From a virus, in IMG/VR virus record IMGVR_UViG_3300020420_000873, positions 1-64,000 of that record: 64,000 nucleotides of DNA. One strand, given 5' to 3'. The translations under genes were made by a program, and so were the position numbers. This document shows positions 4,612-29,787 of this stretch, piece by piece. A model generated the notes under the pieces. It did not search any database, was not told the origin of the DNA, and saw nothing but the letters and a program-made list of their open reading frames with translations. Position 1 is the stretch's first letter. Each line of letters begins with the position of its first letter.

Positions 4612-4617
4612 ATATAA

Positions 4618-7607: not shown

Positions 7608-7626
7608 ATTGTAAGAGGTTTTAACA

Positions 7627-8712: not shown

Positions 8713-8714
8713 TA

Positions 8715-8791: not shown

Positions 8792-8794
8792 ATG

Positions 8795-14934: not shown

Positions 14935-15210
14935 ATGTTTATATCATGGAAAACAGATGGTTCTGCAGGTGCTGTAGATTTAATGAAGGGTCGTTTAGAA
15001 AACAACGATTTCAGCGATTATATCACGTGGGCATCAGTAAACGGCAGAATTAACTTCAAATATGAAATGGTTGGCGACGATTTAGTAATCACAGAAGAGT
15101 GGAATATCGATAGAGCGGCTTATGACGCACTTGACATTGATAACTCAGACGGTGAAGGCAATCCATTACCAATGGAAGAAACTACTGATCATTTATCATT
15201 TGATGAATAA
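14935..15210 (+). CDS. Hypothetical acidic phage protein
   Basis: A 91-residue protein (MFISWKTDGSAGAVDLMKGR) with a negatively charged C terminus and no recognised domain. It has a late promoter, a strong ribosome site and its own terminator, so it is a single-gene late transcript. It could be a small virion or assembly protein, by expression class only. Confidence 0.65.
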   Translation: MFISWKTDGSAGAVDLMKGRLENNDFSDYITWASVNGRINFKYEMVGDDLVITEEWNIDRAAYDALDIDNSDGEGNPLPMEETTDHLSFDE

Positions 15211-15228: not shown

Positions 15229-15264
15229 AAAGGCTCACTGTTGTAAAAACGATGGTGAGCTTTT
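15229..15264 (+). terminator. Rho-independent terminator inside the next gene's 3' end
   Basis: GCTCAC (15233-15238) pairs with GTGAGC (15255-15260), extended by A/T pairs and a T run. It terminates the 14935 transcript and lies within the last codons of the convergent oxygenase gene. Confidence 0.7.
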
Positions 15265-15825
15265 ATAATACTCATACACATCATTTATAGTCATACCATA
15301 ATCAAAATCAAGCTGAAAACCATAACGGGTCATAGTTTCACCACCTTTGGCACTGTGTAATTGTCCTGTGTTAACTACAACAGGATGACTGTAATATAGT
15401 GTTTTGGTTTCTTCTCTTTTATTATTATACCAAGTAATTGAACCACCTGCGGGTTTAAACTCTACAAGTAATGCTACCATTCTTTGCACATCTCTGTGAA
15501 TATTTAAAAACCAACCAGGAGACATTTTTGTGTATTGTTTCCTAACAATAAGGCTTGTTGGCATGTTTAAAACTTTACAGGTATCTTTTACTATTTGTTC
15601 AACTAGCGGATTACTATTAAATTCTGCTCCATGATCAACATCTTGATAATAAACCCATTCGTTATCATTTTGATCTTCTTCAATACCTTCTTCATACGTT
15701 ACTTGATGTCCTGCATAAGCTACGTCAACTTTTTGAAACTTGTCACGTAGACTATCAATTGCATTTATGTTTGCTTCGTTATCTATTTTTAATTGTGGTA
15801 GTTCAAAATATTCAAAGTGCTTCAT
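15235..15825 (-). CDS. 2OG-Fe(II) oxygenase, last gene of operon B
   Basis: A 196-residue protein with H110-R-D112 (FLNIHRD), H157 (QLHSAKGG) and R167 (TRYGFQLDF), the metal triad and 2-oxoglutarate arginine of an aspartyl/asparaginyl-hydroxylase-like dioxygenase. Last of 13 minus-strand genes; its start overlaps the stop of the preceding oxygenase gene by four bases. It is one of four 2OG oxygenases in this operon, and they are too different in sequence to be simple copies, which suggests several successive hydroxylations or desaturations in one pathway. Confidence 0.8.
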   Translation of the reverse strand: MKHFEYFELPQLKIDNEANINAIDSLRDKFQKVDVAYAGHQVTYEEGIEEDQNDNEWVYYQDVDHGAEFNSNPLVEQIVKDTCKVLNMPTSLIVRKQYTKMSPGWFLNIHRDVQRMVALLVEFKPAGGSITWYNNKREETKTLYYSHPVVVNTGQLHSAKGGETMTRYGFQLDFDYGMTINDVYEYYKSSPSFLQQ

Positions 15826-16583
15826 TTTCTGTCTCCGAACTCTATTGCGTAATCTTTATATTTTTCCCAACTACGTGTTAATGTTTCTAAATGCTTATCT
15901 GGATCAATTGACCCTGTAGTTGTAACTACAAATTTTTGTTGTTCAATTTTTTTAGCACCATGCGGACGATCTAATTCATTTAATACAAATGTGTTTGTAT
16001 CCATTGGTAGTTCCATAAATTTATAATCTTTTGGATCTTGCTGTTCTAAACTTTCTGTCCAAAATAAACTAGGATCACGTACATCATTTATCAATAATCT
16101 ATAACCAGAAGGTTCCAAAGGTCTCAATGTAGAATGATCTGATTGAGATAGTCCTGGTACATCCATGTGTAAAGGTACATCTCTACGTTGTCTAATTAAT
16201 TCTGCATGATTACATTGTATTGGTAGTTGTTCTATTAGTTTTACTATACCATAAAGCTCTTTTGGTAATGCAGGATTAACATTTACTTTTCTTTTTCTAG
16301 TTAATCTGTTCAACCAACTTTCTCTAACTTTATCTGCTTTACCAAAATCATCTTCATCAAGCTGTCCTAATATACAAACTATTCGCCAAAGTTCATGTGG
16401 TGCTGTTTCTACATAAGGTGCATTTTCTAATTTATCAGCTGAATATGATTCTGTAACTACATCTGGTGGCCACATGTAATTTCTATCGTGGAACACTTCA
16501 AGTTCATCTAAATCAATTTTTTGATAAGGCAAATCAATTGGTAGGAAACATACGTTACGAAAATCTTTATATTCTTTTTTCAT
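15822..16583 (-). CDS. 2OG-Fe(II) oxygenase
   Basis: A 253-residue protein with H139-M-D141 (VPLHMDVP), the distal H208 in NELDRPHGA, and basic residues after it that may bind 2-oxoglutarate (no Arg at the usual spacing; K217 or R161 could serve). The DTNTFVLNELDRPHGAKK strand is very like the protein at 17309 (ETDAFLINNCTQPHGVD), so these two are paralogues. Its start overlaps the 3' end of the desaturase gene by 17 bases. The substrate is probably the product of a neighbouring enzyme. Confidence 0.75.
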   Translation of the reverse strand: MKKEYKDFRNVCFLPIDLPYQKIDLDELEVFHDRNYMWPPDVVTESYSADKLENAPYVETAPHELWRIVCILGQLDEDDFGKADKVRESWLNRLTRKRKVNVNPALPKELYGIVKLIEQLPIQCNHAELIRQRRDVPLHMDVPGLSQSDHSTLRPLEPSGYRLLINDVRDPSLFWTESLEQQDPKDYKFMELPMDTNTFVLNELDRPHGAKKIEQQKFVVTTTGSIDPDKHLETLTRSWEKYKDYAIEFGDRK

Positions 16584-17325
16584 CCTTGTGCCTCTTATCT
16601 AATAAAAAAGTTTTTATAATCCATGCTGGTAAATCTATTTCCCACCACTTCTCTTTGTTGTTCCAACTTTGTGGTTTTTGGTGGTGTGTGTTATGTAGCC
16701 CACTACCAAGTGTGATTAAATTTACCCATGTATTATTTGTACTTCCATCTGGTGTATTAAACAATCTGTAACCCCATTTATGACATAATACATTTACAGC
16801 ACCAGCACTATGAAATGTTATTACTGCTGGTATTGATATTAAAAATACTGCTATACGCCAATCAATTAAAGCAACGATTCCATATACACCTAATAGTAAT
16901 TTTAAATAATGTTGATGTATAAATTTAATCCATTTATCTTTAATTAAATCTTTTACAAATCTTGTTTCAATTGTAAAAGGCTCCCAGAATGTTGTCCATA
17001 TTCTCCATGCTGATTGACCACCATGTGGATCTTCTTTAGTTTCAGGCACTGCGTGATGTTTTCTATGTACTCCACACCATGCAATTGGTGAACCAAAACA
17101 GTTAAACATGCTTAACACAATTAACATTCTTGATTTCCAATATGACGTTTCAAAACTTTTGTGTGATAGATACCTATGTAAAGCAATTTCGCCACCAACT
17201 TTACCAAACATAATCCAGCCAATAAGAGATAGCCATAACCAACTTAGATCTGCATACATCAAACCTACTATAAGCAGTAAGTGGTTAGCTAATAAAATTA
17301 GTTTTAATTTATATTCGTAGCTCAT
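16567..17325 (-). CDS. Membrane fatty-acid desaturase (delta-9 type)
   Basis: A 252-residue integral membrane di-iron desaturase with all three histidine boxes: HRYLSH (50-55), HRKHH (87-91) and HNTHH (211-215), separated by hydrophobic spans. These enzymes introduce a double bond into an acyl chain on a lipid or thioester, using two electrons delivered by a reductase. A ferredoxin-NADP reductase homologue is encoded two genes upstream in the same operon and could supply electrons. The GVHRKHHAVPETKEDPH segment is typical of the acyl-CoA/acyl-lipid branch. A second desaturase is encoded at 32799. Confidence 0.88.
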   Translation of the reverse strand: MSYEYKLKLILLANHLLLIVGLMYADLSWLWLSLIGWIMFGKVGGEIALHRYLSHKSFETSYWKSRMLIVLSMFNCFGSPIAWCGVHRKHHAVPETKEDPHGGQSAWRIWTTFWEPFTIETRFVKDLIKDKWIKFIHQHYLKLLLGVYGIVALIDWRIAVFLISIPAVITFHSAGAVNVLCHKWGYRLFNTPDGSTNNTWVNLITLGSGLHNTHHQKPQSWNNKEKWWEIDLPAWIIKTFLLDKRHKDEKRI

Positions 17326-17974
17326 TCTTTTTTATAACCTGTGTATTGTATTTATTCGCACTTCGCTCTATCAACTTTTGATGTGCAGATTTAATTACCT
17401 TTCCTAATATAAAACCAACTATACGATCGTCATCAACACCTTCTTTAACATCAACTCCATGTGGTTGTGTGCAATTGTTAATTAAAAAAGCATCTGTTTC
17501 TTCAGGAATAGTACAAAAATGTTTAGGTTGATTGCTCATATCTTTGCTATAGTCGTAGTCTTTACACATGTATAAGCTATCGCGTGATCCACTTACTACA
17601 AATCTATAACCTATAGGTTCATTTTCTCGTTGATGATCGAACATTTCTTGCGTAATTGTCATGTGATGTGGGTGCGGTGCTTTAACATAATTACCATCCA
17701 CATGTGGAGCAACATTTCCTGTTGACCTTGCTATCCTTACGTAAAATTTATATTCAAAAGGAAAATATGTATCTATCCAATGTAATAGTTCTGGATACTT
17801 TTGTTTAGCAAAATCATTCCAAGGTTTCATTTCACCAAATGGAACTGATAGATCTTTCACTCCTAATAATGTTTCTTCTTTCCACCATGCAAACTTTTCT
17901 CCACCGATAAAATTATCTAGTATTGATTGTTTGTTTGGAATTGGTGGTATGTCTAAAGGGGTGAATACTATCAT
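17309..17974 (-). CDS. 2OG-Fe(II) oxygenase
   Basis: A 221-residue protein with H91-V-D93 (APHVDG), H172 (QPHGVD) and R184 (DDRIVGF), the full ligand set of a 2-oxoglutarate dioxygenase. It resembles the protein at 15822 in the C-terminal half. It overlaps the upstream reductase gene by four bases (ATGA-type) and the downstream desaturase gene by 17. It probably hydroxylates an intermediate of the operon's product. Confidence 0.8.
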   Translation of the reverse strand: MIVFTPLDIPPIPNKQSILDNFIGGEKFAWWKEETLLGVKDLSVPFGEMKPWNDFAKQKYPELLHWIDTYFPFEYKFYVRIARSTGNVAPHVDGNYVKAPHPHHMTITQEMFDHQRENEPIGYRFVVSGSRDSLYMCKDYDYSKDMSNQPKHFCTIPEETDAFLINNCTQPHGVDVKEGVDDDRIVGFILGKVIKSAHQKLIERSANKYNTQVIKKNELRI

Positions 17975-18732
17975 CTTTGTACAAATGCTTTCTCTACTAC
18001 AAATTGTCCCGGTATAGAAGTATTTCCTTCTTGCATACCCAATGACTCAAAGTGTTCTATTAAATCTTTATTAAGACCTTGTGATCCACATATCATAAAT
18101 CTATCATCTTTTGTGTCTAAACTTTGTCCTACAGTATCTGAAAACAGTCTACCATTTTTTATCCATTCAGTAATTCTTCCCTTGCGTGGCCAATCTTGTT
18201 GTGTTAATGTATTAAAGTATCTAAAGTTGCCTTGTGTAAGTGCTTTCCATTCTTCATTAAACCAATTAAGTGGCTCATGGTATGCTAATTCATTTTCATA
18301 TTGTACTGTGTGAGTAAGTATAACTTTTTCAAAGCGTTCATAGGTTGCAGGATCTTTTATTATTCCTAAGAAAGGTGCAAGTCCTGTGCCTGTTGATATC
18401 AAGTATAGATTGCGTCCAGGCATTAAATAATCAATCACAAGTGTGCCTGTTGACCTAGGATTAACTAACACTTCATCTCCTACCTTAAGATGTTGTAATT
18501 TAGAAGTTAATGGACCATCATCAATTTTAATTGATAGAAATTCTAAATAGTCTTCATGATTAGCAGAAGCAATCGAATATGCTCTCATTATTTTCTTGCC
18601 TTCATGCTCCATGCCAATCATTGCAAATTCACCATTGTTAAATTTATTTGGATAGTTTCTCGTAGTTTTAAAAGAAAAAGTTTTATCACTCCAATGTTTT
18701 ACCCAAGTTACTGTTTCTTTATTAACTGCCAT
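17971..18732 (-). CDS. Ferredoxin/flavodoxin-NADP(+) reductase
   Basis: A 253-residue flavoprotein: RAYSIAS (50-56) is the FAD-binding motif, GDEVLV (85-90) the edge strand, STGTGLAPF (113-121) the NADP-binding loop and FMICGS near 212 the nicotinamide-site cysteine motif. The C terminus ends VEKAFVQR, as in bacterial Fpr enzymes. It moves electrons between NADPH and ferredoxin or flavodoxin. Its place amid radical SAM enzymes and a desaturase, all of which need low-potential electrons, strongly suggests a dedicated electron supply. The one-base overlap with the dehydrogenase gene upstream shows co-translation. Confidence 0.9.
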   Translation of the reverse strand: MAVNKETVTWVKHWSDKTFSFKTTRNYPNKFNNGEFAMIGMEHEGKKIMRAYSIASANHEDYLEFLSIKIDDGPLTSKLQHLKVGDEVLVNPRSTGTLVIDYLMPGRNLYLISTGTGLAPFLGIIKDPATYERFEKVILTHTVQYENELAYHEPLNWFNEEWKALTQGNFRYFNTLTQQDWPRKGRITEWIKNGRLFSDTVGQSLDTKDDRFMICGSQGLNKDLIEHFESLGMQEGNTSIPGQFVVEKAFVQR

Positions 18733-19946
18733 TAAACGTTCCTCGTGTTACCATATTCAACAACTGTACAATTTTCTATTTGTGGACATTGTCTCCAAGG
18801 GTCAACAATAATTGATCCTTTTGGAAAATCATATTTGGCTTTATCATCTGTGCCATATGTTACCTTTGGATTGTGTGCTAATAGATAAACTGCTGTGCCT
18901 AAATCTTTAGGAGGTGTATCACCTGTGTGTTCATCTTTGTAATACAATGTTCTACCTGCTTTTTCAATGTAGTGTCCAATAAGCAAACTGTATGATCCGT
19001 TAGTGTAAGGCACGTGAGGTTTATATGCTTTACCTACAATTACAATTGGCAAATTGTATGACATTAATTTTTTAGCAAGATTTTCTGCTTGTACTTCTCT
19101 AGCACCCATGATAGCATCAAACAAATCATAACCTAAGCCTAAATGGTCTGCCATCCAACGTAATGCAATATTATCTCTTGGGTGACAAGCACCACCATCT
19201 CCCATACCTGCTGTCATATATTTTGGTCCCATGATACGCATGTCTGAATATGCAAGTGCAGAAGTTACCACATCAACATTGATGTTACCTTGTTTTTCTG
19301 CTACATCTTGAATCATGTTTACCAAACCAATCTTTGCTGAAATAAATGTGTTGTAAAATATTTTAATTGATTCACATTCATCCCAAGTACCAACTACATA
19401 CCTTGGACTGTTTTGCATCATTGGTTTGTAAAAATCAATAAGTTCTTTGGCATCACCTGTCTTTGATCCATCTTCTGTTCCAATCATAATCATTTCAGGA
19501 TTAACCATATCCCATTTTACTGAACCCATGGCAATCAAATAAGGATTGTATACAAAACGTGCATTAGTAATTAATGGCTCTAGTTCACGTCTTGTTGTGC
19601 CTGGTAGTACAGTTGATATAAGAACCACTAGTTGTTTTTTATTCACAAACTGATTAACTTCTTGCAAAATATTTTTTACAATTGTGTAATCAAAATCTTT
19701 TGGTTCTAAATGTGCTGTTGGTGTCGAACCATCATAACGTGGATCATGTGGTGTTGGTGCCGCAATAAAAACAATGTCTTTGTCTTTTACTGCTTCAGCA
19801 ATAGATCCTTTCATTGCAAAATTTTCTGGCTTTCTTGGCTCTACGTCATAACCTTCAACCATATATTGTTGTGCCATTACTTCTGCACAATCTTGTCCAA
19901 GTTTACCGCAACCTATCATTGCGACTTTTGTATTTTTTAATTTCAT
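18732..19946 (-). CDS. UDP-glucose/GDP-mannose dehydrogenase family protein
   Basis: A 404-residue protein. The N-terminal Rossmann fold carries IGCGKLG (11-17); conserved K205 lies in the central helix, and the catalytic cysteine C254 is in GMGDGGACHPRDN, the family signature. Enzymes of this group oxidise the C6 alcohol of a nucleotide sugar to a carboxylate with two NAD. The C-terminal third is short and divergent, so the substrate may not be UDP-glucose. Together with the aminotransferase-like and carbamoyl-transfer genes upstream it suggests an unusual sugar acid, though no glycosyltransferase is present. Confidence 0.85.
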   Translation of the reverse strand: MKLKNTKVAMIGCGKLGQDCAEVMAQQYMVEGYDVEPRKPENFAMKGSIAEAVKDKDIVFIAAPTPHDPRYDGSTPTAHLEPKDFDYTIVKNILQEVNQFVNKKQLVVLISTVLPGTTRRELEPLITNARFVYNPYLIAMGSVKWDMVNPEMIMIGTEDGSKTGDAKELIDFYKPMMQNSPRYVVGTWDECESIKIFYNTFISAKIGLVNMIQDVAEKQGNINVDVVTSALAYSDMRIMGPKYMTAGMGDGGACHPRDNIALRWMADHLGLGYDLFDAIMGAREVQAENLAKKLMSYNLPIVIVGKAYKPHVPYTNGSYSLLIGHYIEKAGRTLYYKDEHTGDTPPKDLGTAVYLLAHNPKVTYGTDDKAKYDFPKGSIIVDPWRQCPQIENCTVVEYGNTRNV

Positions 19947-21427
19947 GAATATACCCTCACTTTGTGTTTTTGTTCAAATGCATCTGCATGTTGTCTTGTA
20001 TTTACTAACGGCTCACCTTTGATATTAAGACTGGTGTTTAGTAACATTGGACAACCTGTTTCATCATAGAACTTTTTAATTAAATTATAAAATCCTGGTG
20101 CCTCTTTTTGTGTAACAGTTTGTACACGTGAAGTACCATCAGCATGTATTATTGCTGGAAACTCTTGTGGCTTTCTACATATAGCAACTGCCTGCATGTA
20201 TGGAGACTCTGTAATACCGCCAGGCATTGTAAAATACTCATGTACATGTTCTTCAAGTATGGCAGGAGCAAAAGGTCTAAACTTTTGTCGTTTTTTAATA
20301 TCGTTTACTCTGTCTTTGATTTCACCTCCCCTTGGGTCTGCTAATAAACTTCTATTACCTAATGCCCTTGGCCCAAACTCTGCTTTACCACTTGCTACTC
20401 CTATGATGTTTCCATTTATAAGAGCTTCACAGGCAGAATCCACAGGATAATTACCTTCTATGTTTGTACCTAAAAAAGGACCTTGCCAATTTACTTTGTC
20501 ACCATAACCTAATGCGGCCGCTCCTAACGAGTTACCTGCATCACCTGGATTAGGCATGATCCATATGTTTTTGTTTTTATTATACAGCAATGAGTTAGCT
20601 ACACAATTAAGTGCTACTCCTCCCATCCACACAATATTTTTTTGTGAACTGTAAGTACTTGCTATCTCAAATAATTTAAGAATTTTCTTTTCAATAACCT
20701 GTTGTATTGATGCCGCAGTATCATATTTAAATTGTTCATCAATCATAGGTATATGAGGCATCCAATCTTGTATACCAGCATGAACGTTTTGAGTTAACTT
20801 CAATGGATCACGTTTATCAAAAAAATGATCTTCAATTTGTTTTGCATACTTTGGTTCACCATACGCCGCCATACCCATTAAAATATATTCTTCTTCATTT
20901 GCTTTTAGTCCGACTCTTTGAGTAAATGCTGAATACAATAAACCTAGTGAATGTGGGTACTGATACGTTTTTAATCTTTTTAAATTATTTGGTGCTGTGT
21001 ATTCCCATATTGATATAGTATCAAACTCTCCAATAGCATCAGCAACAATAACACAGGCACTGTTGTAAGGTGATGTGTATGCTCCGGCGGCCGCATGTGC
21101 TTTGTGATGTTCTACATATTCTAACTTATGTGGTATCATATGTTGAAACTGTTTCATATACATTTTTGGTAGATTGCAAGATTGAAATACCTCACCCCAT
21201 TGACCTGCAACCATTTGTCTGCGTTTTTTTAGCCACGGTCTTTCATGCCATATAACACGATCTGGATCACCATATTCCAATGCTTCATTTATCATTTCAT
21301 TACATAAGTCAGAGTCATTTTTAATTCTTGTGTATCTTTCTGTGTGTCCGGCAAATACTATTTCGCCATCTTTAACTACAGATAAAGATCCATCATGGCC
21401 CAATCCACATATACCCCAAATTATCAT
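19943..21427 (-). CDS. NodU/TobZ-type carbamoyltransferase
   Basis: A 494-residue protein. HHKAHAAAGAY (107-117) is the metal- and carbamoyl-binding motif of the N-terminal domain, GGVALNC and FGPRALGNRS mark the ATP-binding region, and RPFAPAIL begins the C-terminal YrdC-like part. The family makes carbamoyl-adenylate from carbamoyl phosphate and ATP and transfers it to a hydroxyl group on an antibiotic, sugar or, in some phages, a hydroxymethylated DNA base. It is shorter than many family members. Its position after hydroxylases in the operon fits O-carbamoylation of a newly made hydroxyl. Confidence 0.9.
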   Translation of the reverse strand: MIIWGICGLGHDGSLSVVKDGEIVFAGHTERYTRIKNDSDLCNEMINEALEYGDPDRVIWHERPWLKKRRQMVAGQWGEVFQSCNLPKMYMKQFQHMIPHKLEYVEHHKAHAAAGAYTSPYNSACVIVADAIGEFDTISIWEYTAPNNLKRLKTYQYPHSLGLLYSAFTQRVGLKANEEEYILMGMAAYGEPKYAKQIEDHFFDKRDPLKLTQNVHAGIQDWMPHIPMIDEQFKYDTAASIQQVIEKKILKLFEIASTYSSQKNIVWMGGVALNCVANSLLYNKNKNIWIMPNPGDAGNSLGAAALGYGDKVNWQGPFLGTNIEGNYPVDSACEALINGNIIGVASGKAEFGPRALGNRSLLADPRGGEIKDRVNDIKKRQKFRPFAPAILEEHVHEYFTMPGGITESPYMQAVAICRKPQEFPAIIHADGTSRVQTVTQKEAPGFYNLIKKFYDETGCPMLLNTSLNIKGEPLVNTRQHADAFEQKHKVRVYS

Positions 21428-21945
21428 TTTGCACTCACCATCATTTGTTTTATTTCAAAAGGTTGATCTATAATCCATTTTATAGTATCAATTATATTTT
21501 CATATGATAATTTTGCACCATCATATTCTTTATTAAATTCTGTGTCGACATATCCCAAACCCAACGTTGTAACTTTACATTTCCTTTTTTGATTGTGTAA
21601 TAATTCTGCTTGTGAATGTAAAGCAACTTTTTCTACAGGATATTGATTATGTACTACTTGCCAATTATTGTAAGGAACAGTATCAACACCTATATTAATT
21701 ATTAGCTTATCTTGATTCTGCCATGCTTCAAAAACATCATTAAGCAATTCAACTTGTCCAAATCCTTCATGTGCATTGTTTACAAAAATATCACAATCGC
21801 TTATAGCTTGAACTATTTTAGCTCTTGAATCTTTATTGTTTATATCATAGCCTGTTGATTTGCTGAATCCAAGACTGTTTGGAAATGCATCATAAATTGC
21901 TTTGCCAATTCTTTTTGTGTGTCCTGATACTGCTACTGTCTTCAT
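21424..21945 (-). CDS. Short-chain dehydrogenase/reductase-like protein
   Basis: A 173-residue minimal SDR. GHTKRIGKAI (8-17) replaces TGxxxGIG, NNAHEG (56-61) corresponds to NNAG, and Y102-x3-K106 (YPVEK) gives the catalytic pair. The usual catalytic Ser is unclear (GVDTV in place of GSxS). Shorter than the usual 240-250 residues. It resembles the SDR at 32174, including the unusual NNAH motif, so they are paralogues specific to this phage. Probably interconverts an alcohol and a ketone with NAD(P). Confidence 0.75.
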   Translation of the reverse strand: MKTVAVSGHTKRIGKAIYDAFPNSLGFSKSTGYDINNKDSRAKIVQAISDCDIFVNNAHEGFGQVELLNDVFEAWQNQDKLIINIGVDTVPYNNWQVVHNQYPVEKVALHSQAELLHNQKRKCKVTTLGLGYVDTEFNKEYDGAKLSYENIIDTIKWIIDQPFEIKQMMVSAK

Positions 21946-22815
21946 TTAAATTCTCTCATATGCTTGTGTTAAACACACACGGTTTATACCATTTTCTCTT
22001 TTAAATCTATCCCATTCTTTGTCATCTGTTGTTCCAATCAAATAAGAATCACTTGGTGTTAAATTAAAATGTTTACAAATTAAGTTTTGTTTCTCACTAT
22101 ACTCTTCTTTTTTCGCAAACACACTACTGTTCATTGTTACTGCTCTAAACACATCGATAATTGCATGATTAAAATAACCAACACCTTGAAGCTCTTGTTG
22201 TATCAATTCAGCTTCTCTAACAAAACGCACTCCAGCTCTCAACAATCCAAGTCCATAAGGTTTTGAACAACTCCAAAAAATTTCTTTAACGTTCTCATAC
22301 AAATTTAATCTGTACTGACCAGTAGTACCAACAAATGCTAAATCTAGATAAATTGGACATATTTGTCTTGATCCAACTTCATCATACCTTCTATCAAAAT
22401 TTCCTGTTGCACTAAATGGATTACTCATATACAGAGGTACACCTATTTGTAAGTCATTCACTGACCTAGCAACATGTACAGGTTTTTTCATAAACGTTGG
22501 ATATCTGTATTCACCTTCAAATACTTGATACTTTTTAACCTTAGTACACATCCAGTCAATGCTTTCATGTATACCATTTGTAGGATAAGCCCATCTCATT
22601 TCAGATAAATCAATCAATGGTTCTAAATAATTCCTAATTTGGTTTTGACAATTTTCCCAACGAACCCTTCTTCTTACTGAAGGTGTTTTATCATTCTCAT
22701 CAGTGCTTTCAATGTAAGATCCATAACTACTGGTTAGCATATTCTTAATTGTCATATCTGTTGGCGAATGTATTGCTTTACTTTTACCAAATGTTTCGTT
22801 TGTTATATTTTTCAT
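21946..22815 (-). CDS. Divergent PLP-dependent aminotransferase-like protein
   Basis: A 289-residue protein with motifs of fold-type I aminotransferases: TNGIHESIDW near 79-88, SNPFSATG (131-138) in place of NPxNPTG, an aspartate in IYLDLAF (D158) to bind the pyridine nitrogen, and SCSKPYGLGLLRAG (182-195) with K185 as the probable PLP Schiff-base lysine and R193 for phosphate. The protein lacks much of the usual C-terminal domain (family length is about 400). Likely transfers an amino group to a keto-intermediate. Because of its divergence, altered chemistry such as decarboxylation is possible. Confidence 0.62.
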   Translation of the reverse strand: MKNITNETFGKSKAIHSPTDMTIKNMLTSSYGSYIESTDENDKTPSVRRRVRWENCQNQIRNYLEPLIDLSEMRWAYPTNGIHESIDWMCTKVKKYQVFEGEYRYPTFMKKPVHVARSVNDLQIGVPLYMSNPFSATGNFDRRYDEVGSRQICPIYLDLAFVGTTGQYRLNLYENVKEIFWSCSKPYGLGLLRAGVRFVREAELIQQELQGVGYFNHAIIDVFRAVTMNSSVFAKKEEYSEKQNLICKHFNLTPSDSYLIGTTDDKEWDRFKRENGINRVCLTQAYERI

Positions 22816-22816
22816 A

Positions 22817-23479
22817 TTACCTTTGCTTCATGTGTTTACATACTCCTGCAAGTGTTTGATCGTTGACATCAACGTTTACAACCAACCAATATGCAGGGTC
22901 TGGTGTTGTATTAAACAAGTAATGTACTTTTGCTGTATCAACAAAGTATAAAAGACCTTGTTGCCATTGTAATACTTTATCTTCAAGTATAAAAGTCATG
23001 CCGGGAGTATCACAGTTTTTTAATGGCATTATTAATCTAAAAGTATCAAATACTAATTTGTTTGATTGATGAAAGTCATATTCATCTGGATGATCTCTAT
23101 GTGGTGGAAAAAATCCTCCAGTGTTTAATTTTAATATGTGTGTTCTAAATATATGTCCTTCAAAAGGTTGTAGACATTCTTTCAGAGACTCCCATTCATA
23201 AACTGGTGTCGGAACTTTAAAATCTCGTTCTGTCCATTCAGTACCATTTTCTTTATTATACTCATACACACTATCCAGATCTGGTCTTCCTGACAACCCT
23301 CCATCTAAACTTGTAATACTTAATCCTTGCCTTGGATAATCTTTTCTTGGATTGTATTGTACATATTTAAATTGTTCTTCTGTCCAGTCAATGAACTTAG
23401 AAGAATCCTTCATACGTAAACGCAAAGGATACTGTGATCCAAACGTTGTTAAATCTCTGTATAAGCTATTCTTGTTCAT
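22817..23479 (-). CDS. 2OG-Fe(II) oxygenase
   Basis: A protein of about 220 residues with HRD (in FPPHRDHP) as the first ligand pair and the distal histidine in VDTAKVHYLFN about 59 residues later. The start chosen is the ATG overlapping the stop of the upstream radical SAM gene (ATGA type); another ATG lies eight codons earlier. The family hydroxylates or desaturates small molecules or residues. It lies between the radical SAM block and the aminotransferase-like gene of operon B. Confidence 0.72.
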   Translation of the reverse strand: MNKNSLYRDLTTFGSQYPLRLRMKDSSKFIDWTEEQFKYVQYNPRKDYPRQGLSITSLDGGLSGRPDLDSVYEYNKENGTEWTERDFKVPTPVYEWESLKECLQPFEGHIFRTHILKLNTGGFFPPHRDHPDEYDFHQSNKLVFDTFRLIMPLKNCDTPGMTFILEDKVLQWQQGLLYFVDTAKVHYLFNTTPDPAYWLVVNVDVNDQTLAGVCKHMKQR

Positions 23480-24636
23480 TCGTATGTTCTGTCTCCTGGC
23501 CATAAGGGTAATTTAGTTCCTTCAGCTCTTTTTGGTATCTTTGAATCAGCACTTGATACACAACTTTGTGAAATACATTTTTTTGGCTTGTCAAATAATT
23601 TAAATCCTGTTTCAATATTTCCAAGCGGTTCATCATGACAACTATAACTCCTTTTTATGCTACCATCTGGTTCTCTAATAATAATTGATCTGTATCCTGA
23701 AGAACATTCCCATCCTTCAAATTTATTAAAATTAAATGCGTTAAATCTTTCTGCTTGATCCATAAAGTATGGATTGTTTTCTTTATCTCTAAATTCAACT
23801 TGAAAATGCTGTGGCACTCCTTGTGAATATGTTTGCTTTTGCATTGTTCGATCATCATCTATTTTAAATGTTGGTTTTGGTCTTTGTACATGTTTATTTT
23901 TTTCTTCAGTGAATCCACGTTGTGGCATTCCGTTGTATAACTTGTCAAGCATTTCTTTCGAGTAGCCTTCAACGACCGTTGACGCTGTAGGATCTGATTG
24001 AGGTTTGAGCGTAACGTTAATACCTCTATTGTGGAAGTATAATGATTCCTCATATAGTTCATCGAACCATTCTGGAACCATAACTTGGTTGATTGTGACT
24101 TGGACATCGTGTTCTTGGACAAAGCATAACTTGTCTGCGAACTGTTCTCTTTTCTCTTGTGAGTTAACGTGTTCCCTGTGGTATGAAGCCGTGATACTGG
24201 CTCTATGGAACGGTGCGACTGCTTTAACATATTGTTCAAACCATTTCATGTTTCTACTGCAATTACTTGTCATGTGTACAGAAGTATAGTTAGTGTTTGG
24301 AGTATCATCAGCCAGATGCTGAAGAATATCAAGATAACCAGGATGAAACGTAGGCTCGCCTCCAGAAAGACTGAAGTGGAAACTATTAAATCCTCTATCT
24401 CTTGCTTGTCTTTTGATCTCATCAATGGTGGCAAGACAAAGCTCAGTAGGCCTATGATCTTTTCTGTCACTCCTAGCATACGGCCAACAGTAGCTACACC
24501 TATAGTTACAAAACCTACCAAGAAGCCAACTGACTGTAAAAAGATCCCTATACAGCATAGTACGTTGTCCCACACGTACAAGCTCAGGGTACGGAATTTT
24601 TGTAAAATCATATTCACTCCATTTTAAATCATTCAT
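23476..24636 (-). CDS. Radical SAM protein with C-terminal Cys domain
   Basis: A 386-residue protein. The SAM-cluster motif is CNYRCSYC (residues 43-50 from this start), followed by SLSGGEPTFHPGY and MTSNCSRN, as in classic radical SAM enzymes. The C terminus has scattered cysteines (CSSGYR, YSCHDE, CISQSC) that could bind an auxiliary cluster. It belongs to a different subgroup from the twitch-type neighbours. The N-terminal two thirds (about 23960-24600) is richer in GC and uses different codons from the rest of the gene and its neighbours, suggesting recombination or recent acquisition. The start was chosen by overlap with the upstream stop. Confidence 0.82.
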   Translation of the reverse strand: MNDLKWSEYDFTKIPYPELVRVGQRTMLYRDLFTVSWLLGRFCNYRCSYCWPYARSDRKDHRPTELCLATIDEIKRQARDRGFNSFHFSLSGGEPTFHPGYLDILQHLADDTPNTNYTSVHMTSNCSRNMKWFEQYVKAVAPFHRASITASYHREHVNSQEKREQFADKLCFVQEHDVQVTINQVMVPEWFDELYEESLYFHNRGINVTLKPQSDPTASTVVEGYSKEMLDKLYNGMPQRGFTEEKNKHVQRPKPTFKIDDDRTMQKQTYSQGVPQHFQVEFRDKENNPYFMDQAERFNAFNFNKFEGWECSSGYRSIIIREPDGSIKRSYSCHDEPLGNIETGFKLFDKPKKCISQSCVSSADSKIPKRAEGTKLPLWPGDRTYE

Positions 24637-25853
24637 TGCCAATACTCCTTAAACTCTGGATATACTTCTAAAAAATCAGTGTTGTTTAATCTATCCATAG
24701 TTTCAATGTATTCCTTTGTCGAACTTGGCAACATATTGTTTTCAATGTCAGTATTGTTCATATAATCCAATACATAGTTTGACCATTTAACTATTTTGGC
24801 CAAACGGTTCTCCTTCAAGTTTTTTAAATTATCTATTTTATTATAAACTCTTTTTGTTACAATGTCTTTCATTTTCTTTGGTATATGCTGAATATTTAAA
24901 GCTTCAGGATATTGTACCAGACTGCAATGAAAAGGACAATCTAACGATTGATAATAATCAATTATATCATCAAATCTAGAAATGTTATACAATGAAACTG
25001 TACATGTTGTTGTTAAATTAAAAACTTCCGATGGTAATTTGGATTTCAATGTTTTTATATTATTTTCAACAGCCTTCAAATCACTTCCTGTTCTTAAATA
25101 GCCATGTATTTTTTTATCACCATCTAAACTTACACGACAGTTTATGCGTTTAAATTTGCTCCAAAGATCACTAATATGCCTATCTTTTAGTACTATGTTG
25201 TTTAAATTTGTATTGTACTCTAACGTAATGTTATTTGCATATGGTAATAGTTTTTCTAACGCATCATAATGCTGAGGTTGGATCAATGGTTCTCCTCCTG
25301 CTATAACTATTTCTTCTACTCTTGGCCCTATATCATTAACAACTTGATTAAAAGTTTCTAATGGTAATTTTGCTATGCCACGCCATGTACTTGTTTCAGT
25401 CAATTGGTATTTGTCAAATAAACGTTTTACTTCGTCATGCTTGTTTACTGCAACTGCCCACGTTGAACTATATATTGACGAGCAGTGTCTACATCTCAAA
25501 TCACACACATTACCAAAACGTAACTCGATTGTTTTAACGTTCATTGGCAACTCACCATCGTTTACTTGTTTTAAAACATCCGGTATATACTTTTCATAAT
25601 CTTGATTACACTGTTGCCTAGTTGATACAACATTTGCTTTTTCCATATCCCAACAACTTTTACAACCTTCATGCTGTATTCCATTCATTAGATTGTTACG
25701 TATTTTTTTATAATTTTCGTTGTTCCATATTTCTTTTAATGTTTTGTCTCCATAGTGTCCTAACGAATCATGATTACGCCAACAAGCACTAACAAATCCT
25801 TTTGGCTTTAAGTTCATATGAATAAACGGCATTATGCAGAATGTTTTAGACAT
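24633..25853 (-). CDS. Radical SAM protein, N-terminal twitch/SPASM type
   Basis: A 406-residue protein with N-terminal CIMPF, ACWRN and GCKSC cysteines, then C117-x3-C121-x2-C124 and IAGGEPLIQPQ. Same family as the proteins at 6186, 10910 and 25846, and its start overlaps the stop of the last of these. Two twitch-type enzymes next to each other in one operon suggest either sequential reactions or a complex. The function is unknown. Confidence 0.83.
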   Translation of the reverse strand: MSKTFCIMPFIHMNLKPKGFVSACWRNHDSLGHYGDKTLKEIWNNENYKKIRNNLMNGIQHEGCKSCWDMEKANVVSTRQQCNQDYEKYIPDVLKQVNDGELPMNVKTIELRFGNVCDLRCRHCSSIYSSTWAVAVNKHDEVKRLFDKYQLTETSTWRGIAKLPLETFNQVVNDIGPRVEEIVIAGGEPLIQPQHYDALEKLLPYANNITLEYNTNLNNIVLKDRHISDLWSKFKRINCRVSLDGDKKIHGYLRTGSDLKAVENNIKTLKSKLPSEVFNLTTTCTVSLYNISRFDDIIDYYQSLDCPFHCSLVQYPEALNIQHIPKKMKDIVTKRVYNKIDNLKNLKENRLAKIVKWSNYVLDYMNNTDIENNMLPSSTKEYIETMDRLNNTDFLEVYPEFKEYWQ

Positions 25854-27096
25854 GTATCACCTCTGCTAGTTCTGGAAATGTTGTACGCCAATTTTCACTT
25901 CGAACATCATCAATTAGATTTGCTTTTTCTAGAAATTCATTTGAGAGATCGTTTGAAATATAGTTCAATCCTTTTGATACTTTACTGTAACTTTTTTCTA
26001 CAATAGATAATATTACTTCATTATTATTGTGTGTTGATATTAATTGTTTTTTATGTTGCTGTACTATTTCTTTTATCTTAGACTGATTGTTAGAACTAAA
26101 ATTTGACAATGAAAGATACTGTGGTGTTTGCGCCAGATGTAGATCTAAAAAGTCTTTAGTTATAATTTCTTTCGGAAAATGATCAGCTATCCAATTTATA
26201 AATTCTTTTAGATACAGAACATTGTATATGGTTAAAGTATGTCCTATCACAACCGATACATTCAAATGTTGTTGACTTACTTTTACCCATTCTGTAGCTG
26301 AATCCATAACTTTTTTCCATTGCGATCCTTTTCTTAAAAATTCTGCTCTTTCGCCGATTGCATCAAGACTTAAATCTATTTTAGCACTTTTAAATTGTGG
26401 TATTAACTTTCTGTATTGTTCTTTTGGAAAGAATGAACAATTTGTAAAAACTTCTAAATGTATGTTTTTTGCTAGATCCCATTTAACTAAATTAGATAAA
26501 AATGTTTGAAATTGATCATTTAAAAAAGGCTCACCTCCTGTTGCTTTTACATTTTTTAAATGCTTTACAGTATCATATTTTATTGATGACAACGACTCAT
26601 TTGTTTTTGGCAGTTGTTTTATAGTGATGTATTCGTGATGTTCATTGCCAAAAAAGTTTTTTATAAGACTTTCATTTTTATCTAAATCTTCATCCCATGT
26701 TGTTGACAATTTAGGTCCACATGATCTACATTTTAAATTACAAAATCTTCCTGTTTGAATTTCAAGAAACTCTAATTCTGTTTCTGAATATTTAGGATCC
26801 TTATTATAGTCATAGCTTATCTCACTGTTTGTATCAATTGCACTTTCACGCATTGATTTAATGCCTGCTTCTTCATCTTGATAGCATCTCCAACATCCTT
26901 TTATTTTTTTACCATTTAATGATTTGTTTCTTATTGTTTCCCATATTTTTTTATAACCTTTATCAAACGATTTAGGATAAACTTGTCCATCATCTTTGTA
27001 TCTACAGCATGGTACAATCGATCCGTCTGGAACTTGCATTACCGCACCGCGGAACAAATATGGGCAATAGGTTTTGTTGTTTTTCAAATCAATCAT
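25846..27096 (-). CDS. Radical SAM protein, first gene of operon B
   Basis: A protein of about 416 residues with N-terminal YCPYLF, VPCCRY and GCWRC cysteines, the SAM-cluster motif FCNLKCRSC and TGGEPFLN. It is the first gene of the 13-gene minus-strand operon and follows a late promoter. I chose the ATG at 27096; a TTG six codons upstream is possible. It is a member of the same paralogous group as three other proteins in this window. The high copy number suggests the twitch-type enzyme is central to the pathway. Confidence 0.83.
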   Translation of the reverse strand: MIDLKNNKTYCPYLFRGAVMQVPDGSIVPCCRYKDDGQVYPKSFDKGYKKIWETIRNKSLNGKKIKGCWRCYQDEEAGIKSMRESAIDTNSEISYDYNKDPKYSETELEFLEIQTGRFCNLKCRSCGPKLSTTWDEDLDKNESLIKNFFGNEHHEYITIKQLPKTNESLSSIKYDTVKHLKNVKATGGEPFLNDQFQTFLSNLVKWDLAKNIHLEVFTNCSFFPKEQYRKLIPQFKSAKIDLSLDAIGERAEFLRKGSQWKKVMDSATEWVKVSQQHLNVSVVIGHTLTIYNVLYLKEFINWIADHFPKEIITKDFLDLHLAQTPQYLSLSNFSSNNQSKIKEIVQQHKKQLISTHNNNEVILSIVEKSYSKVSKGLNYISNDLSNEFLEKANLIDDVRSENWRTTFPELAEVIHV

Positions 27097-27214: not shown

Positions 27215-28030
27215 ATGTTAATAAGGAAAAAATATCAATTGCCAACTATGTGGAAATTCCAAAACCACAAGTTTGATATTAAAAAATTACAACAAGAAGC
27301 ATTAAAATTAGCAAATGATTATGGCAATGTAATGGACACAAATAAAGCATTGTGTTCTAACAATCACGAATTAGTAATGAGTGTCTATAAACATTTTAAA
27401 CAAATTAATCTTACAGAGTTTGATCCACAAGGCGAAGCACCAACTGTTGAGTCATGTGAAGCTATGGGTAAAACTGCTGGTACTGGTGATGAGTCAATTA
27501 GTAAGATTGCCAAATATAGATTAAAAGCAAGACGTGGAGAAAATTTAGATCCGGCACTTAATGAACATAATTATAATACTCCAACAGAAAAATACAAAGG
27601 TACTTACTTTGAAGAAGTAGTGAATTCATTTAAAGCAGATGCAATTAGAGTAAGACTTGTAAGATTAGACCCAGGTAAAACATTAACTCCACATATTGAT
27701 TATGATCCAACTTATGCTGTAAGAGTTATTATCCCTATTTTTGCAGAAGAAGAAGCAACAAATTACTTTTGGAGAAAAAGTAAACAAGAAGCATATCATT
27801 TAAAAGCTGATGGTTCAGCATACTTTTTGAATATTGGATTTACACACACAGTAGTAAATTCTGGTAACACACCAAGAATTAGTTTGATGTTTAGTTTAAA
27901 AAATCAATCAGATTTACAAGAAATTCCAGAAGACGATTGGAACGAAAAAAACAATATGGGTGATTTACAAATTGAAAAAGAATACAAAGAACACAAGGCG
28001 GAAGCAGATGCCCAACCAGTGGCTGTTTAA
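27215..28030 (+). CDS. 2OG-Fe(II) oxygenase, aspartyl hydroxylase-like
   Basis: A 271-residue protein with H160-I-D162 (LTPHIDYDP), H211 (GFTHTVVNSG) and R221 (PRISLMF). RVIIPIF corresponds to the RLHIPL strand of aspartyl/asparaginyl hydroxylases. The N-terminal 100 residues are unassigned. It overlaps the downstream SET-domain gene by 23 bases, so the two are co-translated. The pairing with a SET protein, also seen at 244/813, hints that both may act on the same protein target. Confidence 0.8.
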   Translation: MLIRKKYQLPTMWKFQNHKFDIKKLQQEALKLANDYGNVMDTNKALCSNNHELVMSVYKHFKQINLTEFDPQGEAPTVESCEAMGKTAGTGDESISKIAKYRLKARRGENLDPALNEHNYNTPTEKYKGTYFEEVVNSFKADAIRVRLVRLDPGKTLTPHIDYDPTYAVRVIIPIFAEEEATNYFWRKSKQEAYHLKADGSAYFLNIGFTHTVVNSGNTPRISLMFSLKNQSDLQEIPEDDWNEKNNMGDLQIEKEYKEHKAEADAQPVAV

Positions 28031-28334
28031 AACAGAAATAAAAGAATCAAAAATACACGGACAAGGAAGGTTTGCTTTAGAAAACATTCCGATCGGCAGA
28101 AGAGTAGTTGAGCTCAAAGGTGCAATTGTTCCTAAAGAAGAAGCTCCTGGAAAATTTCCGGTTAGTTTAACACATAACATGAACTGTGATGATAGCTACG
28201 TTAATCATAGTGAAGATTCAAATCTTGCTTACCTAGGTGGTACTAGTTTTATTGCTTGTAAAAATATTAAAAAAGGCGATGAACTTACTATGGACTACAG
28301 CCAATTTGCTGGCGATAGAAAATTTTTGTTTTAA
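28008..28334 (+). CDS. SET-domain protein (putative lysine methyltransferase)
   Basis: A 108-residue SET domain: HGQGRFALENI near residue 17, the catalytic-site motif VNHSEDSNLAY in place of NHS-x-x-PN, IKKGDELTMDY with the terminal tyrosine. The ATG was chosen for its AAGGCGG ribosome site and overlap with the oxygenase gene. It could methylate a lysine in a host or phage protein. It converges on and overlaps the next minus-strand gene by four bases. Confidence 0.76.
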   Translation: MPNQWLFKTEIKESKIHGQGRFALENIPIGRRVVELKGAIVPKEEAPGKFPVSLTHNMNCDDSYVNHSEDSNLAYLGGTSFIACKNIKKGDELTMDYSQFAGDRKFLF

Positions 28335-29020
28335 TTTTTAAACTTATCTTTCCAATTCATATTGGCATATGGCCATCCTGTTATAACAACACGACATCCT
28401 GGTTTGCCATTTCTTACTGGATCTACATAATGAGCTGATCCTACTCTCATCAATACACAGGTATTTCTTTTTGGTTTTATTGCTAAAGGTCCTACTAGGT
28501 ATGGATCTTGTTTTGATTCTTTAGACATTTTTGTTACAAACTTTTCCCAATTTGCACGTTCTCTCGGATGACTTTGAAAATGATCCTCTAACATAATCTC
28601 GTTTGGAAACACTAACTCTCCGCCATCTTCTGTTGTTAAATAATTTACAAAAACAAATTCACCATATATGTCTTTACGTTCTGTGTGTACATTGTAGATA
28701 CTGTTTGGATTAAAAGTTTTTGTTGTAAACTGTAAAACATTTTTTTCATTAATGTCTTGTATTAATATTGGTTTGTAAACATCTGCAAGTACTTGATTTA
28801 ATTTTTCAATAACTGCCACAACCACTTCTTTATCTTTGTGTACATTATATTTTACATGATTATAATTATAATATGACTCACTTATAATATGGGGTTGTTC
28901 ATCACCATCTAACTCTTTAGTTTCTGATTGCTGTATTTTTTCAAGTGTTTGATCAACTAGACTTTCACTAATAAAGTTTTCTGTATACCAAACTTCATCT
29001 TTAACTAATTCGGTCCACAT
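28331..29020 (-). CDS. Prolyl-4-hydroxylase-like 2OG oxygenase, copy 1
   Basis: A 229-residue protein. The first ligand pair is H-T-E (NVHTERKD), the distal histidine is in GSAHYVDPV and a basic residue follows in CRVVITGWPY. TTEDGGELVFPNE is the family strand before the insert. Closely related to the upstream gene product; both begin MW-ELVK, which supports the TAATG-overlap start chosen here over one three codons earlier. The HxE variant is seen in other members of the superfamily. Last gene of operon A. Confidence 0.75.
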   Translation of the reverse strand: MWTELVKDEVWYTENFISESLVDQTLEKIQQSETKELDGDEQPHIISESYYNYNHVKYNVHKDKEVVVAVIEKLNQVLADVYKPILIQDINEKNVLQFTTKTFNPNSIYNVHTERKDIYGEFVFVNYLTTEDGGELVFPNEIMLEDHFQSHPRERANWEKFVTKMSKESKQDPYLVGPLAIKPKRNTCVLMRVGSAHYVDPVRNGKPGCRVVITGWPYANMNWKDKFKN

Positions 29021-29787
29021 TAGTGACATGCCTCTGGTTTTGGTTCAGAATGTCTTTTGGCATCAAAGTAATAATTAAAATTACAATGTCTATCTAATCC
29101 ATTTATTAAATCTTTAGTAGCATATGGCCATCCTGTTACAACTTGTCTTGAATCTGTTGCTACTTCTCCTTTTAATGGATTTACGTAATGAGCTGACCCA
29201 ATAGCAAAAACCACGCATTTGTTATAGACTGGCTTTACAACTACATCATTTAAGTAACGCATCGGAAATCCTTTTGATTCAACCAACTCGATGTTTTCTT
29301 GCCATCTAGACTTTTGCTTTGGAAATTTTTGTAAATGTTTTTCTACACCTTCACGACTAGGAAATACTAATTCTCCTCCATCTTCTGTAGAAAGAAAATG
29401 CATGAAAGCATATGGACCATACTTGTCAATTGGCTCTGTGTGTAAATCATACCACCCACGTTTTGAAAAACTTTTTGTAAACAATTGCAAACCTTCTAAG
29501 TTGTCCATTGGTACAGATGTTTCAGTTAATGGTTGCATTAGCTCATTTACTTTGCCCATGTATAAATCAATTAGTACTCTATCTTTGTGTATATCAGTTC
29601 TATGGACTGTGTAATTATATGTCGTTGCATTAACTCCAGAATTTCTAAAGTTTGGTAATATTGCTTCGCCGGGCTCTAATTCAGTTTTACCTGCTGTTGA
29701 CATATTTTGTTTTATTTGACTGATGGTATTATCGTCAAGGAAGTTATCATATTCCCATAATTCGTTTTTTACTAGTTCTTTCCACAT
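29020..29787 (-). CDS. Prolyl-4-hydroxylase-like 2OG oxygenase, copy 2
   Basis: A 255-residue paralogue of the downstream gene: DLHTEPIDKYG (H116, E118), STEDGGELVFPSRE, GSAHYVNPL and a final RQVVTGWPYA. The C terminus has an extra 30 residues. It may act on the same substrate as copy 1 at another position. Its start overlaps the stop of the B12-binding radical SAM gene by one base, so the two are probably coupled. Confidence 0.75.
   Translation of the reverse strand: MWKELVKNELWEYDNFLDDNTISQIKQNMSTAGKTELEPGEAILPNFRNSGVNATTYNYTVHRTDIHKDRVLIDLYMGKVNELMQPLTETSVPMDNLEGLQLFTKSFSKRGWYDLHTEPIDKYGPYAFMHFLSTEDGGELVFPSREGVEKHLQKFPKQKSRWQENIELVESKGFPMRYLNDVVVKPVYNKCVVFAIGSAHYVNPLKGEVATDSRQVVTGWPYATKDLINGLDRHCNFNYYFDAKRHSEPKPEACH

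What the first reader, a model, noticed from the sequence alone, without database searches (positions are those of the whole stretch)
15235..27096. Thirteen-gene overlapping operon for an unknown oxidative tailoring pathway in a phage
Thirteen minus-strand genes with stop/start overlaps or gaps of one base encode three radical SAM enzymes, four 2OG oxygenases, a PLP aminotransferase-like protein, an SDR, a NodU-type carbamoyltransferase, a nucleotide-sugar dehydrogenase, an Fpr-type reductase and a desaturase. I know no described phage pathway with this content. Candidate products are a modified nucleobase, an unusual carbamoylated sugar or lipid, or a small metabolite. No glycosyltransferase, scaffold-building enzyme or precursor peptide is visible, so the starting substrate must come from the host or from genes outside the window.
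Basis: partly seen in the sequence, partly recalled or inferred. Interest (0 to 1): 0.93.

Follow-up and report, generated by a model that had tools for sequence, protein, structure and literature searches.

The report
Phage operon for unknown tailoring chemistry
A large ocean virus of bacteria carries a tightly packed, conserved set of 13 enzyme genes that looks like a small biosynthetic factory, probably for an unusually decorated sugar or related small molecule whose identity nobody has determined, and a cultured phage with a similar set would make it testable.

Summary
Thirteen minus-strand genes at 15,235-27,096 are packed with gaps of -17 to +1 bases, keep their catalytic motifs, and are under strong purifying selection (dN/dS 0.04-0.12 against a relative). 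Three radical SAM enzymes, four HxD...H (2OG-type) oxygenases, a HisC-like PLP enzyme, an SDR, a NodU/TobZ-type carbamoyltransferase, a UDP-glucose-type dehydrogenase, a ferredoxin/flavodoxin-NADP reductase and an acyl-CoA-desaturase-type protein are there. A conserved core recurs in five other marine contigs of this T4-like phage group; one spans 328 kb and has SufB/C/D genes inside the extended island. The island reaches at least 33,572 and has two separable modules. A (UGD, carbamoyltransferase, radical SAM) resembles cyanophage and pelagiphage glycan clusters. B (PLP, SDR, 2OG, desaturase) occurs without A elsewhere. The cultured Pelagibacter phage Mosig has a related set beside tail-fibre genes. 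No thymidylate synthase, TGT, AMP-binding or classical glycosyltransferase above cut-off was found, so known DNA modifications and NRPS-type scaffolds are unlikely. Best reading: a mosaic island making an oxidised, aminated, carbamoylated sugar-derived group for a surface glycan; a diffusible metabolite is the main rival. The substrate is unproven.

The parts
15235..15825 (-). g1, putative 2OG-type oxygenase (196 aa), in the variable end of the operon
   Evidence: HxD (110), H157, R167 invariant in 4 sequences; no family hit
15822..16583 (-). g2, 2OG-type oxygenase, distant paralog of g4 (253 aa)
   Evidence: Alignment A6, ~24% identity to g4 with shared EPxGYR and PHG motifs
16567..17325 (-). 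g3, membrane di-iron acyl-CoA-desaturase-type protein (252 aa)
   Evidence: PF00487 6e-15; acyl-CoA desaturase 4zyo 3e-13; three His boxes invariant
17309..17974 (-). g4, core 2OG-type oxygenase (221 aa); four tandem copies in relative L010
   Evidence: HxD...H...R invariant; Foldseek top hits ABH2/PHD2, E 6e-3
17971..18732 (-). g5, ferredoxin/flavodoxin-NADP reductase (253 aa)
   Evidence: E 1e-76 to solved FNRs
18732..19946 (-). g6, UDP-glucose/GDP-mannose dehydrogenase family (404 aa)
   Evidence: PF00984, PF03721; PHROG 9148 6e-102; GMGDGGACHPRD active-site segment; 72% to Bellamy UGD
19943..21427 (-). g7, NodU/TobZ-type O-carbamoyltransferase (494 aa)
   Evidence: PF02543 and PF16861; GdmN/TobZ solved relatives
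21424..21945 (-). g8, short SDR-like oxidoreductase (173 aa)
   Evidence: YxxxK (Y102, K106) invariant in 7 homologs; similar to sdr2, PF00106 1e-5
21946..22815 (-). g9, HisC-like PLP aminotransferase-fold enzyme (289 aa)
   Evidence: Invariant D158, S182, K185, R193, R197 in 14 sequences; Foldseek HisC 7e-8
22817..23479 (-). g10, 2OG oxygenase, Asp/Arg-hydroxylase-like (220 aa from ATG 23479)
   Evidence: Weak PF05118; H127, D129, H186 invariant; 44% to Mosig homolog
23476..24636 (-). g11, radical SAM enzyme (386 aa); 58-65% identical homologs in Bdellovibrionota
   Evidence: PF04055 1e-12; CxxxCxxC
24633..25853 (-). g12, radical SAM enzyme with N-terminal twitch domain (406 aa)
   Evidence: NF033640 2e-95; cluster cysteines invariant
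25846..27096 (-). g13, radical SAM enzyme with N-terminal twitch domain (416 aa)
   Evidence: NF033640 1e-76
27215..28030 (+). 2OG oxygenase (Asp_Arg_Hydrox), extended island
   Evidence: PF05118 8e-6; recurs with g4/PLP homologs in L119, L121, L163, L165 and Mosig
27960..28334 (+). SET-domain protein
   Evidence: PF00856 4e-8
28331..29029 (-). 2OG oxygenase (2OG-FeII_Oxy_3)
   Evidence: PF13640 4e-7
29020..29787 (-). 2OG-type oxygenase
   Evidence: PHROG 61 2e-6
29787..31568 (-). B12-type radical SAM, KedN5 C-methyltransferase-like
   Evidence: NF033712 5e-45, below the curated cut-off
31565..32173 (-). GNAT acetyltransferase
   Evidence: PF00583 1e-5
32174..32821 (-). SDR-type oxidoreductase
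   Evidence: PF00106 1e-5, just below cut-off
32799..33572 (-). second desaturase-type protein
   Evidence: Shares PHROG 35201 with g3; 75% homologs beside PLP in L119-L129
10910..13134 (+). two adjacent radical SAM genes, same families as elsewhere in the island

Best explanation
A phage-encoded, mosaic biosynthetic island that makes and decorates a sugar-derived group, most likely for a glycan on the host surface or the virion. Module A starts from host nucleotide sugar: g6 oxidises it to a uronic acid, radical SAM enzymes g11-g13 carry out C-H chemistry on it, and g7 caps a hydroxyl with carbamoyl. Module B (PLP enzyme g9, SDR g8, 2OG enzymes g4/g2/g10/g1, desaturase g3) introduces amino, hydroxyl and possibly unsaturated or acyl features. 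The phage flavodoxin (65,352-65,792 of the record) and reductase g5 would supply low-potential electrons to the radical SAM enzymes. The tail end of the operon is a swap zone where different oxygenases change the final decoration, as expected for a trait under diversifying pressure such as superinfection exclusion or receptor evasion. Shown: gene content, families, catalytic motifs, purifying selection, non-random linkage, modularity, swap zone. Inferred: substrate, step order, electron route, acceptor and benefit.
For: UGD 72% identical to the one in cultured cyanophage Bellamy, where it sits with two glycosyltransferases, carbamoyltransferase, NadE-like protein, methyltransferase and epimerases; same grouping in HTVC008M. 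Related contigs add sulfotransferases; Mosig adds a gene annotated as an ArnB-type aminotransferase and its module lies directly beside tail-fibre genes; G002 has tail-fibre-like genes about 22 kb from the operon end. Outside the window clade, deduplicated PLP loci carry carbamoyltransferase 10/19, desaturase 10/19, radical SAM 18/19, UGD 9/19 against 0/25, 0/25, 5/25, 1/25 in DNA-polymerase control loci (Fisher 4e-5, 4e-5, 5e-7, 1e-3). dN/dS 0.04-0.12. Pelagimyophage host-recognition clusters with UGD, glycosyltransferases and radical SAM cassettes are described (PMC7029224). SufB/C/D lie inside the island in G004.
Against: No GT2, GT8 or above-cut-off GT1 family protein in G000, G002, G004, G005, G006 or G007; the glycosyltransferase-like protein family near other radical SAM genes has no Pfam, PHROG or PDB match, so its identity is only by eye. 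Desaturase and multiple 2OG oxygenases are not usual sugar enzymes. Module B occurs without UGD or carbamoyltransferase (L120, L119, L127), so B's substrate may be unrelated to A's. The SDR and g1 assignments rest on motifs.
Confidence: 0.42

Rival explanations
1. A phage-encoded natural-product pathway: module B (with A as optional glycosyl/carbamoyl tailoring) converts a host metabolite such as an amino acid into a diffusible small molecule that inhibits competitors or a host target.
For: Swap zone of oxygenases, tandem duplication of g4 (four copies in L010), PLP+GNAT+methyltransferase+TauD+FMN reductase combinations in L119, L127 and Mosig, ALDH and class III aminotransferase in L119; the combination is typical of secondary metabolism by general knowledge of these families.
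Against: No AMP-binding (NRPS-type) protein in six records; no exporter or resistance gene identified; close location to tail fibres in Mosig favours a surface role.
Confidence: 0.27
2. Post-translational modification of a phage virion protein or a peptide (RiPP-like): radical SAM twitch enzymes, protein-hydroxylase-like 2OG enzymes, SET and GNAT act on a structural protein.
For: NF033640 twitch radical SAM, Asp/Arg-hydroxylase-like 2OG, SET and GNAT in the extended island; tail fibres nearby in relatives.
Against: No precursor-sized free ORF inside the operon (genes overlap); the small flanking protein 14935-15210 is absent in L012/L114 and has a second copy far away in G004; UGD and carbamoyltransferase do not fit.
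Confidence: 0.13
3. Lipid or glycolipid remodelling of the host membrane: desaturase, SDR, PLP and oxygenases act on an acyl chain, UGD supplies a glucuronosyl head group.
For: g3 is nearest to stearoyl/acyl-CoA desaturases with intact His boxes; g5 could feed electrons to it.
Against: g9 is nearest by fold to HisC-like enzymes rather than to alpha-oxoamine synthases, although serine palmitoyltransferase also appears lower in the list; no acyltransferase or ketosynthase recognised in the operon.
Confidence: 0.1
4. DNA hypermodification, for example a carbamoylated base as in 5-carbamoyloxymethylcytosine.
For: Related carbamoyltransferases act on 5-hydroxymethylcytosine (PMC8670742).
Against: In that study the enzyme co-occurs with thymidylate synthase homologs; none in G000-G004, including a 328-kb record; no TGT/DpdA homolog.
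Confidence: 0.05

Closest known systems
Host-recognition/LPS-type cluster of pelagimyophages and cyanomyophages (PMC7029224; Bellamy, HTVC008M)
   Same: T4-like marine phages, UGD, carbamoyltransferase, methyltransferase, NadE-like protein, radical SAM cassettes, tail fibres near
   Different: Those described are dominated by glycosyltransferases; here classical GT families are missing and 2OG oxygenases, PLP enzyme, desaturase and FNR dominate
Pelagibacter phage Mosig EXVC030M genes 00072-00093 (MT647606)
   Same: Homologs of g10 (44%), x27215 (39%), GNAT (38%), g3 (29%), g9 (28%), g7 (41% over half its length), plus radical SAM and TauD, beside tail-fibre genes
   Different: This record is not among the best UGD hits, no FNR in the stretch read, order different, low identity; its announcement does not discuss the module (PMC7892664)
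5-hydroxymethylcytosine carbamoyltransferase system (PMC8670742)
   Same: Carbam_trans N and C domains in viral DNA
   Different: No linked thymidylate synthase homolog; neighbours are sugar and oxidative enzymes
Fe-S rich T4-like marine viral genomes (PMC5332604, 12 radical SAM genes in one genome)
   Same: Many radical SAM genes plus Fe-S assembly genes
   Different: The passages read list Fe-S genes; they do not describe a linked oxidative tailoring operon
Radical SAM sets of Bdellovibrionota chromosomes (L248, L250, L259)
   Same: g11 at 58-65%, with twitch radical SAM and rs12085-like radical SAM neighbours
   Different: No UGD, carbamoyltransferase, 2OG or PLP partner recognised in the stretches read

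Membership tests
NodU/TobZ O-carbamoyltransferase | Carbam_trans_N and Carbam_trans_C domains | tested here: met
   1e-38 and 2e-54
NodU/TobZ O-carbamoyltransferase | Conserved active-site segments (HHxAHA, EFGPRALGxRS, KKR..FRPFAP, LLNTS) | tested here: met
   Alignment to GdmN
NodU/TobZ O-carbamoyltransferase | Carbamoylation of a hydroxyl acceptor | not testable with these tools
   Needs assay
UDP-glucose/GDP-mannose dehydrogenase | N-terminal and central domains with catalytic Cys segment | tested here: met
   PF03721, PF00984; GGACHPRD aligned to GGSCFPKD
UDP-glucose/GDP-mannose dehydrogenase | C-terminal UDP-binding domain (PF03720) | tested here: inconclusive
   No PF03720 hit up to E 0.01, though the alignment runs on past residue 300
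Twitch-domain radical SAM (NF033640) | Score above curated cut-off, CxxxCxxC and N-terminal cluster cysteines | tested here: met
   g12 320 and g13 258 bits vs cut-off 170; cysteines invariant
Phage 5cmdC DNA modification | Linked thymidylate synthase / dCMP hydroxymethylase homolog | tested here: not met
   None in G000-G004
7-deazaguanine DNA modification | TGT/DpdA-type transglycosylase | tested here: not met
   None in 8 records
RiPP cluster | Precursor peptide linked to the radical SAM genes | tested here: inconclusive
   No free ORF inside operon; flanking small protein not consistently linked
NRPS-type cluster | AMP-binding adenylation domain | tested here: not met
   None in six records
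T4-like phage glycan / host-recognition cluster | UGD and carbamoyltransferase linked | tested here: met
   Operon itself; Bellamy and HTVC008M
T4-like phage glycan / host-recognition cluster | Glycosyltransferases in the cluster | tested here: not met
   No GT2, GT8, GT1 above cut-off in the clade's records
T4-like phage glycan / host-recognition cluster | Located with tail-fibre genes | tested here: met
   Mosig; G002 tail-fibre-like ORFs; window 47261-52147, about 20 kb away

The most novel reading that the evidence does not exclude
Large marine T4-like phages carry a dedicated, combinatorially varied secondary-metabolite pathway (PLP, SDR, stacked 2OG oxygenases, di-iron desaturase, radical SAM and carbamoyl capping, with phage-encoded electron supply and Fe-S assembly) that makes a diffusible or surface-displayed compound with no counterpart in known phage biology.
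Probability: 0.3. Interest if true: 0.9.

Novelty: new variant of a known kind. Interest (0 to 1): 0.64.

Why it matters
Phage accessory genes are usually single host-like enzymes or glycosyltransferase sets. Here a conserved multi-enzyme oxidative pathway, on a 71-kb record with about eight 2OG-type and nine radical SAM enzymes, is maintained by selection and reshuffled between phages. If its product is found it would give a new kind of phage-made molecule and several uncharacterised enzyme families. Because a cultured pelagiphage (Mosig) carries a related module, the question can be put to experiment now.

Tried and rejected
DNA hypermodification: searched thymidylate synthase and TGT families, none. 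NRPS scaffold: AMP-binding, none. Classical glycosyltransferases: GT2, GT8, GT1, none above cut-off, which weakens but does not exclude the glycan reading. Bacterial source of the PLP enzyme: genome-contig scan found none. Profile search of g9, g4 and the glycosyltransferase-like protein against PDB sequences gave nothing useful. Near-identity search in deposited phages: no match; g11: no match in deposited phages. Flanking small protein as a RiPP precursor: not consistently linked. A loose resemblance of the enzyme mix (carbamoyltransferase, desaturase, SDR, 2OG, reductase) to known alkaloid pathways was considered from memory only and dropped: no condensing or amidinotransferase enzyme is in the operon. 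PLP hits in two control loci (L175, L189) may be other aminotransferases.
Full report
What is there. The window is 64 kb of a 70,981-bp IMG/VR record. Beyond its right end lie a T4-type DNA polymerase-like gene, ClpA, peptide deformylase, DnaJ (by eye) and a flavodoxin; the window itself has tail-fibre PHROG hits. At 15,235-27,096 thirteen minus-strand ORFs follow each other with spacings from -17 to +1 bases; ten of the twelve junctions overlap, six of them by 4 bases. Catalytic motifs are intact: CxxxCxxC in all nine radical SAM proteins of the window, HxD in the four 2OG-type proteins, three His boxes in the desaturase, YxxxK in the SDR, and aminotransferase Asp/Lys/Arg residues in the PLP enzyme. 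dN/dS between the window and L011 is 0.035-0.124 for all thirteen genes, so they make selected proteins.

How sure each label is. Desaturase, FNR, UGD-type dehydrogenase, carbamoyltransferase and radical SAM are secure. The PLP enzyme is secure at fold level: a remote homolog reaches Pfam Aminotran_1_2 at 8e-8 and the model (pLDDT 69) finds HisC-type aminotransferases at 7e-8. g4 is probably a 2OG oxygenase: every leading structural match is one, though the best E is 6e-3 and the model is moderate. g2 is a distant paralog of g4. g10 has a sub-threshold Asp/Arg-hydroxylase match. g1 and g8 rest mainly on motifs.

Conservation. Relatives with the cluster are L010, L011, L012, L013 and L114 (L012 and L114 look like one population). 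L011 is collinear throughout, and so is the 328-kb record G004 that holds L013. The constant core is g12, g11, g9, g8, g7, g6, g5, g4; g3 is missing in L012/L114; g10 is replaced by another 2OG-type protein in L013; g13 varies (41-82%). The block after g3 is a swap zone: g2/g1 in the window and L011, but other 2OG-type and TauD-like genes in L010 and L013. In L010 g4 is present in four tandem copies. Extra small genes (PP-loop ATPase-like, ABM-like, nucleotidylyltransferase-like, by eye) are inserted between core genes in relatives.

Limits of the island. Genes at 27,215-33,572 re-assort with homologs of g4 and g9 in L163, L165, L119-L129 and Mosig: further 2OG enzymes, SET, a KedN5-like B12 radical SAM protein, GNAT, SDR and a second desaturase-type protein. 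In G004 SufB, SufC and a SufD-like gene lie inside this stretch and SufS elsewhere in the record. With the flavodoxin and g5 this is a coherent supply for Fe-S enzymes; that they serve them is inference.

Two modules. In L120 (a 242-kb record) g9, g8, g4 and g3 homologs occur with a glutaredoxin-like gene but without UGD, carbamoyltransferase or FNR near by. Conversely UGD and carbamoyltransferase occur without them in Bellamy and HTVC008M, beside glycosyltransferases. So the operon joins module A (UGD, carbamoyltransferase, radical SAM) and module B (PLP, SDR, 2OG, desaturase). The join is not accidental: in deduplicated PLP loci outside the window clade, carbamoyltransferase is near in 10/19, desaturase 10/19, radical SAM 18/19, UGD 9/19, compared with 0/25, 0/25, 5/25 and 1/25 in loci centred on the phage DNA polymerase. 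These loci were found by PLP homology, so they are independent of the other genes; residual relatedness means the p-values are guides. FNR (g5) is confined to the window clade in these data.

Beyond phages. g11 has 58-65% identical homologs on long Bdellovibrionota contigs, there with a twitch radical SAM, an rs12085-like radical SAM and a protein of a recurrent family that I take by eye for a glycosyltransferase but could not confirm. The higher matches in the MED657, MED685 and SP335 assemblies may be phage contigs binned into MAGs.

Mechanism. The best-supported reading is a surface-glycan decoration pathway: oxidation to a uronic nucleotide sugar, radical C-H chemistry, amination or imine chemistry by the PLP enzyme with SDR, hydroxylation by several 2OG enzymes, and carbamoyl capping. 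In support are the family of the dehydrogenase and carbamoyltransferase, their neighbours in cultured phages, sulfotransferases in related islands, and the position beside tail fibres in Mosig. Against it are the missing GT1/2/8 families in the clade's own records and the chemistry of module B. A free small molecule is the main rival. DNA modification is disfavoured. Substrate, order of steps and acceptor are all inferred.

Relation to what is known. Host-recognition clusters with UGD, glycosyltransferases and radical SAM cassettes are published for pelagimyophages (PMC7029224), radical SAM richness for T4-like marine genomes (PMC5332604), radical SAM and UGD for Campylobacter T4-like phages (PMC3322345), and base carbamoylation by a related enzyme (PMC8670742). 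I found no description of the oxidative module or of its conserved linkage; the library lacks most subscription journals, so absence there is weak. Mosig (MT647606) has homologs annotated gene by gene; its announcement does not mention the desaturase or glycosyl genes searched for. I therefore class the finding as a new variant of a known kind, with real interest because the pathway is conserved, chemically unusual and now has a cultured representative.

Noticed in passing
33625-36016: A TonB-dependent receptor gene (PF00593 1.5e-24, PF07715) followed by a DUF6580 membrane protein (4e-44) in a T4-like phage; conserved in G002 and G004, and in L114.
   Followed up: partly
2912-3880: PHO4-like phosphate-transporter-type protein (E 3e-5, below cut-off), 88% homolog in G004.
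   Followed up: no
L248, L250, L259: Chromosomal sets of radical SAM genes in Bdellovibrionota MAGs with g11 homologs at 58-65% identity and a recurrent glycosyltransferase-like protein of no known family.
   Followed up: partly
L093:5019-6485, L093:10847-12095, L090:125-1333: SufB, SufC, SufD-like and SufS genes in the 328-kb phage record G004, three of them inside the tailoring island.
   Followed up: partly
14935-15210: 91-aa small protein on the opposite strand at the operon end; present in L010, L011, L013, absent in L012/L114 which also lack g1-g3; second copy in G004 at about 143.8 kb.
   Followed up: partly
3993-8871: Seven tRNA genes in three groups (Arg x2, Trp, Leu, Gln, Met, Ile).
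   Followed up: no
L009:4319-5347: Saccharopine-dehydrogenase-like ORF (by eye) between DNA polymerase and flavodoxin; 80% homolog in G004.
   Followed up: no
L119:3109-5804: Aldehyde dehydrogenase and class III aminotransferase genes directly before the desaturase/2OG/PLP module in another phage contig.
   Followed up: partly
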